Below are positions 1-22,003 of a stretch of 64,000 nt of DNA, one piece after another. The notes under the pieces are model-generated. The model saw only the letters and a list, made by a program, of their open reading frames with translations, searched no databases and was not told the origin of the DNA. This DNA comes from Coffea arabica (Eukaryota > Streptophyta > Magnoliopsida > Gentianales > Rubiaceae), in contig NC_092329.1 in NCBI RefSeq assembly GCF_036785885.1, positions 8,060,001-8,124,000 on the forward strand. Reading direction: 5' to 3'. The position numbers were made by a program, and so were the translations under genes. Numbering within the stretch: the first letter of the stretch is position 1; the number at the start of each line of letters is the position of its first letter.

Positions 1-1072
1 AGAATGGTGAGCTAATAATTCTTGGTTCGTGGGAAGCCACCACTATTTTCATAGGACATGAAATGCAAGAGATGTTTGTTTAATGGAGTGAGGGACATAT
101 ATATAGAGGATTTCTGAGGGAACATGTGGAGAAATTATTGGGTTGAGATGGATAGAATCTAAGGCGATCAGTTGTTGACGGGTGGTCAGGCTCTCTAATC
201 TTTTTGATTGCTTGCTCACTTTTTTGACTGTTGCTCGTCAATGGAACATTAAATTATTACTTAGAATTAGTAAATTCACTGAGACACATCCAAACAGAGA
301 AGTGTTTGCTTTAGACTTCTTCTTTACTGCTTACTAGGTGCATACCCACATTTGGTTCATTTTAATTTGATCCAACATACCATATATTTGGATCCATTAT
401 TGTTTTTAATTGAGACCCTTTTACATCTTTTTATCAACCGAATTGGGTACGAGCCCTATTTAATAATTCAATTTAGTATTTAAATTTAATGGATTTAGAT
501 TTTAATATGTTTGGTTGCATTTGATAACAAAAAATAGAACATCTGAAGTAATTAAACGGTATTAAATTTTTTAGATAAAACTTGGTCTAAAAAATAAGTG
601 ATAAGCTATTAATTTATCACTTAATGTGACATATACTCAAATGCATCAAATTTAGTATTTAAATATGGATTAATTTTTCCTACACTGACAGTGTATACAC
701 TATCAGCGTTGGATAAATGATAACTATGCAAAATTTGAATTTGCACACATGTCATGAATCAAATGATGATAGTGTATACACTGTCAGACTTCGAATTTCA
801 GTTTTTAAACTTCAATTTTATCTTTTACTGATAGTGCAAATAAATTCTTGTTCAGAGTTCGTTTCAAGTGGCAAATTAAGTCCGGTATTCTTGTTTGTGG
901 AATAATTACACAAGTCCAAAAGGTTGGTAGTTGGTAGCACAAAGCGAATGAATTTGATTTGTAACACAATTCCAACTCGCAAAAGTAAGTAAATGAAAAC
1001 GTTTTTCATATATAACCCGTTTCCATAGTTTATTTTGCACCTAGATACATTGAGGCATGGAAAAGGAGTATG
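1..1072. other. Intergenic, no gene seen
   Basis: AT-rich sequence without a supportable gene. It holds one short palindromic repeat (681-787). The short open frames here lack family motifs, splice context and plausible starts. The right part would carry the 3' UTR of the minus-strand PSK gene. Confidence 0.6.
681..787. repeat. Short palindromic MITE-like repeat
   Basis: The left end reads CACTGACAGTGTATACACTA and the right end carries GATAGTGTATACACTGTCAG, so the ends are inverted copies of each other around a short AT-rich middle. A related fragment lies at about 10794-10850 (GATAGTGTATACACTGATAA), so this is a dispersed family. No clear target duplication was found. Confidence 0.6.
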
Positions 1073-1435
1073 CTAACGGCCATTTCCGCCCTGGCTGTCA
1101 TTTGTGTAAATGTAATCGAGATGAGCCACAAAACTTTTCTGCATCAAGCACTCTTCTTCATCCTCCGCTCCTTGGCAGCTTGCTCCTTCAACCCCCACGA
1201 ATTTCTCCGCCTCAGGATTCTACAACAGAGTTATTAAACAATAAAAAAAATCAAAATAATAAAACGAAAAAATAAACCCCAGAAAAAGGGGAAGGAATCA
1301 AGCATAGTTATTAATCTGCAGGATGGCCAGTACCTCTTTAAGGGCTTTCAGCAGAGAAGGATCACCGCGAGCCGTACATGTAACGGTGAGTAACAGCAGA
1401 ATGGCTACAATGAAGATGGCATTTTGCTTTGACAT
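1073..1435 (-). CDS. PSK: Phytosulfokine precursor (variant YIYTN peptide)
   Basis: Precursor of the secreted sulfated peptide hormone phytosulfokine, which acts on leucine-rich-repeat receptor kinases at the cell surface. Exon 1 is 1435-1334 (34 codons) and exon 2 is 1219-1073 (48 codons plus stop), phase 0, with a GT donor at 1333 and an AG acceptor at 1221-1220; the protein is 82 aa. Residues 1-23 form a signal peptide with a run of Ile and Leu. The family signature is clear: an acidic stretch, ECLM at 57-60, AHLD at 66-69, then the pentapeptide at 70-74. Asp69 before Tyr70 is the context used by tyrosylprotein sulfotransferase. The oddity is Asn74 where classical PSK-alpha has Gln. The 8-residue tail after the peptide (DSQGGNGR) would be trimmed. 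Position 61-62 is QK rather than the common RR. Length and two-exon structure are normal for the family. Identity is nearly certain; activity of the variant peptide is unknown. Confidence 0.93.
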
Positions 1436-21520: not shown

Positions 21521-22003
21521 ATGATGTCCTGCGAAGAGCCGGTTCATTTCCATTTCCCCCCGGTTCTTGAAGATCCTTTCGCTGGTAGTGACCTTCATGA
21601 CCTCGTGTCTCTAATTCAATCAGGATTCCCAACTCATGCCAACTCCGGTTCGGAAACAACCCGAAATGGATTGCCTTCCAATTCAACCTCCGGTTCCGAA
21701 ACAAACAGGTCAGTTTACTCGGTAGAAGAAAGGAAGCGCAGGCGAATGATCTCCAACCGGGATTCAGCTAGGCGGTCCAGGTTGAGAAAGAAGAAGCAAT
21801 TGGAAGAACTCACGAACCAAATGAACCAGCTCAAACTCGAGAATACAGAATTAAAGAACCAGTTGTGCTTGGTTTCACACCAATATCGCGCGGTTCAAAT
21901 GGACTCAACCCGACTAATGGCCGAGTCAATCGACCTCCGACAGAAACTGGCCAATTTAAACCAAATCTTGGTTAACATGCAGCTCCCATCATCTTTGCAC
22001 TAA
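21521..22003 (+). CDS. Group S bZIP transcription factor, 160 aa
   Basis: Sequence-specific DNA-binding factor that should act in the nucleus as a dimer on ACGT-core elements. The basic region spans about 69-93 and keeps the N-x7-R signature (Asn79, Arg87) with the core NRDSARRSR. The zipper follows: hydrophobic heptad positions at Leu97, Leu104, Leu111, Val118, Val125, Leu132, Leu139 and Leu146, a long zipper as usual in group S. The N-terminal 65 residues are acidic, then Ser/Thr/Gly-rich with an internal near-repeat (SGSETTR and SGSETNR). The gene is intronless and short, again as in group S. One departure is Asp81 where most plant bZIPs have Glu (NRESARRS). The first ATG is followed at once by a second; either could start. 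The lack of an upstream ORF argues against subgroup S1. The exact orthologue is not clear. Confidence 0.93.
   Translation: MMSCEEPVHFHFPPVLEDPFAGSDLHDLVSLIQSGFPTHANSGSETTRNGLPSNSTSGSETNRSVYSVEERKRRRMISNRDSARRSRLRKKKQLEELTNQMNQLKLENTELKNQLCLVSHQYRAVQMDSTRLMAESIDLRQKLANLNQILVNMQLPSSLH

What the first reader, a model, noticed from the sequence alone, without database searches (positions are those of the whole stretch)
1073..1435. Phytosulfokine gene whose hormone reads YIYTN, not YIYTQ
The precursor is a clear PSK by its ECLM...AHLDYIYT signature, signal peptide and two-exon structure, but the fifth residue of the mature peptide is Asn. Codon AAT cannot arise from a Gln codon (CAA/CAG) by one change, so simple sequencing error is unlikely. 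Asn-ended PSK variants have been described from legumes; I cannot tell whether this lineage is one, so this may be either that type or an independent origin. Receptor affinity could differ.
Basis: partly seen in the sequence, partly recalled or inferred. Interest (0 to 1): 0.75.

Follow-up and report, generated by a model that had tools for sequence, protein, structure and literature searches.

The report
Asn-ended phytosulfokine gene in coffee
An intact coffee gene encodes a variant of the plant growth hormone phytosulfokine that ends in asparagine, a form that the literature describes as specific to legumes, so this variant is probably not tied to root nodules.

Summary
Minus-strand positions 1435-1073 carry a two-exon, 82-residue phytosulfokine (PSK) precursor whose hormone core reads D-YIYTN-D, with codon AAT for Asn. 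YIYTN is already known as PSK-delta of legume nodules and is called legume-specific in print. The source is not a legume: assembly size, scaffold N50, chromosome pairs and caffeine-pathway genes point to the Coffea arabica HiFi assembly, Rubiaceae. Both subgenomes carry the gene with the same Asn codon, an open frame and splice signals; homoeologue Ka/Ks is 0.28 on only 8 substitutions. It sits beside a YIYTQ PSK on the same strand, an old tandem pair (Ks about 1.1, wide error). It is one of six homoeologous PSK pairs; the other five read YIYTQ. Only the Asn pair has Asp directly after the pentapeptide, the context that SBT3.8 cuts in Arabidopsis PSK1. Best reading: a functional second PSK acting through PSKR, its Asn more likely of independent origin than shared with legumes. 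Expression, peptide, receptor binding and other species were not testable.

The parts
1334..1435 (-). Exon 1 of the PSK precursor gene: start codon, signal-peptide-like hydrophobic stretch, pro-region start (MSKQNAIFIVAILLLLTVTCTARGDPSLLKALKE)
1220..1333 (-). Intron, GT...AG, phase 0, 114 bases
1073..1219 (-). Exon 2: acidic pro-region, ECLM...AHLD signature, YIYTN, short tail, stop codon
1100..1114 (-). YIYTN hormone core; Asn codon AAT at 1102-1100; Asp directly before (DYIYTN) and directly after (DS)
   Evidence: same in the C19 homoeologue
1..1072 (-). Spacer between this gene and the tandem YIYTQ PSK gene, on that gene's promoter side; the YIYTQ gene itself begins about 45 bases beyond the window's left edge (its exon 2 matches at C20:8,059,507-8,059,644)
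   Evidence: spacer 1117 bases on C20

Best explanation
It is a functional phytosulfokine precursor gene of Coffea arabica, present in both subgenomes, that arose by an old tandem duplication of a PSK gene whose other copy reads YIYTQ. Its product is inferred to be secreted, sulfated on both tyrosines by the Golgi sulfotransferase TPST, released in the apoplast by Asp-dependent subtilases cutting at the Asp before and the Asp after the pentapeptide, and read by the ordinary PSK receptor (PSKR with a SERK co-receptor). The Asn form most likely arose here independently of the legume PSK-delta and serves growth signalling rather than nodulation. Shown: gene structure, peptide sequence, presence in both subgenomes, tandem partner, Asp on both sides, low Ka/Ks on few changes. 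Inferred: secretion, sulfation, cleavage, receptor, role and independent origin.
For: Intact two-exon frame and PSK family match. C19 and C20 homoeologues both encode YIYTN; Ka 0.022, Ks 0.080, ratio 0.28 (4 nonsynonymous, 4 synonymous changes), similar to the tandem YIYTQ pair at 0.34. Organism: G000 has 1,197,963,845 bases in 131 contigs and C15 is 53,737,150; the published C. arabica HiFi assembly is 1,198 Mb, 132 scaffolds, N50 53.7 Mb (PMC11018527, table passage). Two caffeine-pathway-like exons, of 13 exon pieces translated, match PDB 2efj and 2eg5 at 118 of 128 and 108 of 116 residues (counted by eye). A tree of 12 coffee PSKs separates the Asn gene plus tandem partner from the rest, UFBoot 79. 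Asp before and after YIYTN in both homoeologues; SBT3.8 cuts AtPSK1 as DYIYTQ|DLNLSP and SlPhyt2 needs the Asp before the peptide. Position 5 is tolerant: Q5K and Q5A promoted root growth more than PSK (PMC11994915).
Against: No transcript, peptide or binding data were available. The Ka/Ks test rests on 8 changes in 79 codons and cannot on its own exclude relaxed constraint. The Arg-Arg-Thr before the peptide in the partner is Gln-Lys-Ser here, and the tail length differs between homoeologues. No legume, other asterid or other Rubiaceae PSK sequence could be compared, so independent origin is an inference; the alpha-delta Ks has a 95% range from 0.6 to saturation, which leaves room for a very old split, and UFBoot 79 is moderate. 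Other position-5 changes (Q5L, Q5F, Q5W) were calculated to weaken binding, so tolerance is not general.
Confidence: 0.72

Rival explanations
1. The coffee and legume Asn genes descend from one Asn-ended PSK that already existed in the common ancestor of rosids and asterids and was lost or overlooked elsewhere.
For: alpha-delta Ks is about 1.1 with no upper bound, so the tandem split may be very old; the Asn gene sits on a long branch. Surveys of single species could have missed it.
Against: Surveys seen in passages for tea (14 genes) and for Brassica napus, with B. rapa and rice, report YIYTQ and no delta-clade member, and a review table gives Arabidopsis six YIYTQ genes and one YIYTH. In the coffee tree the Asn gene pairs with its own YIYTQ neighbour (UFBoot 79).
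Confidence: 0.25
2. The gene is a decaying tandem copy: PSK constraint is relaxed and Asn5 is one step in loss of function, as suggested in print for the Arabidopsis PSK6 that reads YIYTH.
For: Substitutions in the RRT motif kept by the partner and a variable tail; lower Pfam score than the partner, 37.9 against 60.4 bits; AtPSK6 is called a possible pseudogene (PMC11534595, passages).
Against: After a Ks of about 1 from its partner the frame, start, splice sites, Cys, Asp(-1), both Tyr and the identical pentapeptide all persist in both subgenomes.
Confidence: 0.15
3. The Asn codon is a sequencing or assembly error.
For: None found.
Against: Two changes from Gln would be needed, and both homoeologues carry the same codon in regions that differ at many other sites.
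Confidence: 0.01
4. The source is a legume and this is the ordinary legume PSK-delta.
For: The pentapeptide is identical to PSK-delta.
Against: Assembly statistics, chromosome pairs and DXMT/XMT-like genes point to Coffea arabica. No legume marker search was answered, so the case rests on the positive match to coffee.
Confidence: 0.01

Closest known systems
PSK-delta of legumes (MtPSKdelta, LjPSKdelta; Yu et al. 2022, cited in PMC10796568)
   Same: Identical pentapeptide YIYTN; two-exon precursor of about 80 residues with signal peptide and Asp at -1, as described for PSKs in PMC9662189.
   Different: Found in coffee, an asterid; its neighbour is a YIYTQ gene. Whether legume PSK-delta has a downstream Asp or a tandem partner could not be checked, no sequence being held.
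Tandem YIYTQ PSK of coffee chromosome pair C19/C20 (PSK-alpha type)
   Same: Same strand, about 1.1 kb between the two coding regions; related signal region and acidic pro-region.
   Different: Gln at position 5, ends YIYTQNHNP, RRT before the peptide, apparent GC-AG intron.
Arabidopsis PSK1 (DYIYTQ-DLNLSP)
   Same: Asp directly after the pentapeptide, the context cut by SBT3.8.
   Different: Gln at position 5; Arabidopsis, not coffee.
Arabidopsis PSK6 (YIYTH)
   Same: A PSK precursor with a changed fifth residue.
   Different: His instead of Asn; low expression, regarded as a possible pseudogene.

Membership tests
Phytosulfokine precursor (Pfam PF06404) | Match above the curated Pfam cut-off | tested here: met
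   41.5 bits against 25, E 2.9e-10
Phytosulfokine precursor (Pfam PF06404) | Two exons, about 80-120 residues | tested here: met
   82 aa, two exons
Phytosulfokine precursor (Pfam PF06404) | N-terminal signal peptide | tested here: inconclusive
   strongly hydrophobic N-terminus by hydropathy; no signal-peptide predictor run
Phytosulfokine precursor (Pfam PF06404) | Asp directly before the pentapeptide near the C-terminus | tested here: met
   HLD-YIYTN
PSK-delta | Pentapeptide YIYTN | tested here: met
   against PMC9662189
PSK-delta | Belongs to the legume PSK-delta/epsilon clade | not testable with these tools
   No legume precursor sequence held; Yu et al. 2022 not held
PSK-delta | Restricted to legumes | tested here: not met
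   Source is Coffea arabica; the restriction is a published statement, not a biochemical property
PSK-delta | Disulfated mature peptide detected, nodule expression | not testable with these tools
   no expression or mass-spectrometry data

The most novel reading that the evidence does not exclude
Asn-ended PSK evolved separately in the coffee lineage and in legumes, each time as a copy kept beside Gln-ended PSKs in the same genome. In coffee it also has a downstream Asp that gives it its own Asp-dependent release, so that the plant has two PSK signals with separately controlled maturation and no link to nodules.
Probability: 0.35. Interest if true: 0.65.

Novelty: new member of a known kind. 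Interest (0 to 1): 0.47.

Why it matters
Published work presents YIYTN as a legume-specific hormone form that promotes nodulation. An intact gene for it in coffee, which from general knowledge does not form root nodules, means that Asn5 is not by itself a nodulation signature. It also gives a simple comparative test: whether the fifth residue of PSK changes receptor affinity or stability, or only marks a gene whose expression and processing differ. PSK promotes somatic embryogenesis in carrot and conifers (PMC10796568, passages), a route also used to propagate coffee (the latter from general knowledge).

Tried and rejected
PSK-gamma in coffee: two YVYTQ matches on C16 looked like PSK-gamma, but the filter found no signal-peptide-like exon in the 1.4 kb upstream. 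The unit recurs in diverged copies on C1 and C2 (80-89% identity for the seven best copies). The one C1 copy that I read (YIHTQ) does have a hydrophobic open stretch about 0.77 kb upstream that passes the same filter, so an exon 1 is not excluded there. I read these as dispersed exon-2-like copies, probably pseudogenes. They are left out of the count of 12 genes: two matches on C16, four on C1 and C2 (three of these four not read at sequence level), and one on C22 below the cut-off.

Receptor side: I wanted the coffee PSKR island domain. The Arabidopsis PSKR1 query was checked against PDB 4z63 and is identical over 142 of 142 residues, but the genome search did not complete. Nothing is claimed about coffee PSKR.

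Dating: Ks of the tandem pair is too close to saturation to give a date. Exon junctions of the eight other coffee PSK models in the tree were placed by hand, and exon 1 was picked by eye where one search listed several candidates; the four C19/C20 models were cut by script at splice signals that I chose.

Organism: searches for rubisco and legume lectin families as taxon markers did not complete. Contigs C5-C10 were not measured, so 22 chromosomes is inferred. The published assembly has 132 scaffolds against 131 contigs here. An earlier count gave about 95% for the caffeine-gene identity; the counted values are 92% and 93%.

Literature: the term YIYTN occurs in one paper of the held library. 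A wider search for PSK-delta returned nine papers: five on PSK or legume nodulation, one (PMC10490125) that only cites Yu et al., one (PMC12841938) on Brassica napus, two unrelated. I opened six of the nine, PMC9662189 in three of four parts and the other five in passages; PMC11678618 and the two unrelated ones were seen only in the listing. None of the six reports YIYTN outside legumes in what I saw. A search for phytosulfokine with Coffea held 19 papers, 15 listed; no listed title is about PSK genes of coffee, and none was opened for that purpose. Figures and supplements were not searched, so an earlier sighting there is possible. PMC7918699 (passages) was looked at for receptor contacts and is not used.

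Full report
What is there. On the minus strand at 1435-1073 lies a complete small gene: exon 1 (1435-1334), a 114-base GT-AG phase-0 intron (1333-1220) and exon 2 (1219-1073), giving an 82-residue protein that ends ...ECLMQKSFVAHLDYIYTNDSQGGNGR. Pfam assigns it to the PSK precursor family at 41.5 bits, cut-off 25.

Which organism. The window lies in a genome of 1,197,963,845 bases in 131 contigs. The long contigs whose length I saw (C1-C4, C11-C22) are 40-77 Mb, and PSK loci fall on adjacent numbers as pairs (C1/C2, C3/C4, C11/C12, C13/C14, C19/C20). Of 14 contigs sampled from C23 on, 13 are under 0.2 Mb and C130 is 6.9 Mb. C15 is 53,737,150 bases. The published Coffea arabica HiFi assembly has 1,198 Mb, 132 scaffolds and scaffold N50 53.7 Mb (PMC11018527, table passage). 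As an independent check I took methyltransferase exons from this genome and gave two of the 13 translated pieces to the PDB search: the best matches are 2efj (3,7-dimethylxanthine methyltransferase, 118 of 128 aligned residues identical) and 2eg5 (xanthosine methyltransferase, 108 of 116). The best other enzymes lie far below, 254 against 52 bits and 238 against 99 bits once these two entries are set aside (identities counted by eye; that both PDB entries are from Coffea canephora is recalled). Coffea is Rubiaceae, order Gentianales, an asterid. It is not a legume and, from general knowledge, does not form root nodules.

What is known. YIYTN is the core of PSK-delta. PMC9662189 (three of four parts read) calls PSK-delta and PSK-epsilon legume-specific. 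[quoted passage not shown] PMC11820598 (passages) says that PSK-delta is identified specifically in legumes. The tea survey PMC11942274 (passages) is softer, saying predominantly found in leguminous plants; its 14 tea genes share YIYTQ. The Brassica napus survey PMC12841938 (passages) found YIYTQ and no delta-clade member. The founding paper, Yu et al. 2022, is not held; I saw only its title in reference lists. Within the held library I found no report of YIYTN outside legumes (searches; six of the nine papers opened); figures and supplements are not covered.

The gene family in this genome. The PSK profile gives 19 matches at E up to 10, 18 of them over the cut-off. Twelve form six homoeologous pairs with an exon-2 match and a hydrophobic candidate exon 1: C1/C2, C3/C4, C11/C12, C13/C14 and two neighbouring genes on C19/C20. 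Ten of the twelve encode YIYTQ and two, the C19/C20 homoeologues of the window gene, encode YIYTN. The remaining seven matches are two on C16 (YVYTQ), three on C1 (one read, YIHTQ; two unread), one on C2 (unread) and one on C22 below the cut-off. The C16, C1 and C2 ones belong to one repeated unit. No exon 1 was found for the C16 copies within 1.4 kb; the C1 copy that I read has one weak candidate.

History. The YIYTN gene lies on the same strand as a YIYTQ gene, with about 1.1 kb between the two coding regions, in both subgenomes. Homoeologues differ by Ks 0.080 and Ka 0.022 (ratio 0.28; 4 and 4 changes), close to the partner's 0.063, 0.021 and 0.34. The duplication therefore predates the split of the two diploid parents of arabica. 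Between the neighbours Ks is 1.1, bootstrap 95% range 0.6 to saturation (0.96 for the C19 copies), so the duplication is old. A maximum-likelihood tree of the 12 proteins separates the neighbours from all other coffee PSKs with UFBoot 79 (eight of the 12 models joined by hand). This favours an Asn that arose within this locus, apart from legumes, but without other species it is not proof.

How it most likely works. By established PSK biology the precursor is secreted, sulfated by TPST, cut by subtilases and perceived by PSKR with a SERK co-receptor (PMC10796568, passages). Two features are specific here. First, the pentapeptide has Asp on both sides. Tomato SlPhyt2 needs the Asp before the peptide, and Arabidopsis SBT3.8 cuts between the peptide and a following Asp in PSK1, reported as the only Arabidopsis PSK precursor with that Asp (PMC13082318 and PMC10796568, passages). 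Of the twelve coffee genes only the two YIYTN copies have the following Asp; the others continue with Asn, Gly or His. The simplest inference is release at both ends by Asp-dependent subtilases, possibly regulated apart from YIYTQ release. Second, position 5 accepts some changes in the receptor: Q5A and Q5K had calculated binding changes of -0.70 and -1.38 kcal/mol and promoted root growth more than PSK, while Q5L, Q5F and Q5W were calculated to bind less well (PMC11994915, passages and section 3.4). Asn is not in that table, and the words Asn and Q5N do not occur in the text. Lys, one of the two possible one-step intermediates from Gln to Asn, is thus an active hormone in the species tested there, which makes the path plausible without loss of function. 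This is inference from other species.

Verdict. The feature is real and intact. The peptide is known; the lineage is new for it as far as the held literature shows. It is a new member of a known kind whose main value is to remove the legume restriction from PSK-delta and to offer a clean test of what the fifth residue does.

Noticed in passing
G000:C20:8059507-8059960 region (L010) and C19 homoeologue (L009): The tandem YIYTQ PSK gene appears to use a GC-AG intron (AAG|GCAAGT...CATAG|GAT) in both subgenomes.
   Followed up: partly
G000:C16:42911399-42912999; C1:56.37, 56.59 and 56.62 Mb; C2:51.05 Mb: A repeated unit carrying a PSK exon-2-like stretch (YVYTQ on C16, YIHTQ in the C1 copy read), locally duplicated on C16 (338 bases, 99.4% identical); looks like dispersed PSK pseudogenes.
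   Followed up: partly
window 21521-22003 +: A bZIP transcription factor gene about 20 kb from the PSK pair. From memory, Arabidopsis PSK2 and PSK4 also have bZIP neighbours, which would make this an ancestral PSK locus; not tested.
   Followed up: no
G000:C2:680-703 kb, C1:806-808 kb, C17:35.9-36.1 Mb, C18:32.9-33.1 Mb: Caffeine-pathway-like methyltransferase genes, in clusters of several copies on C2, C17 and C18, used here only to identify the organism.
   Followed up: partly
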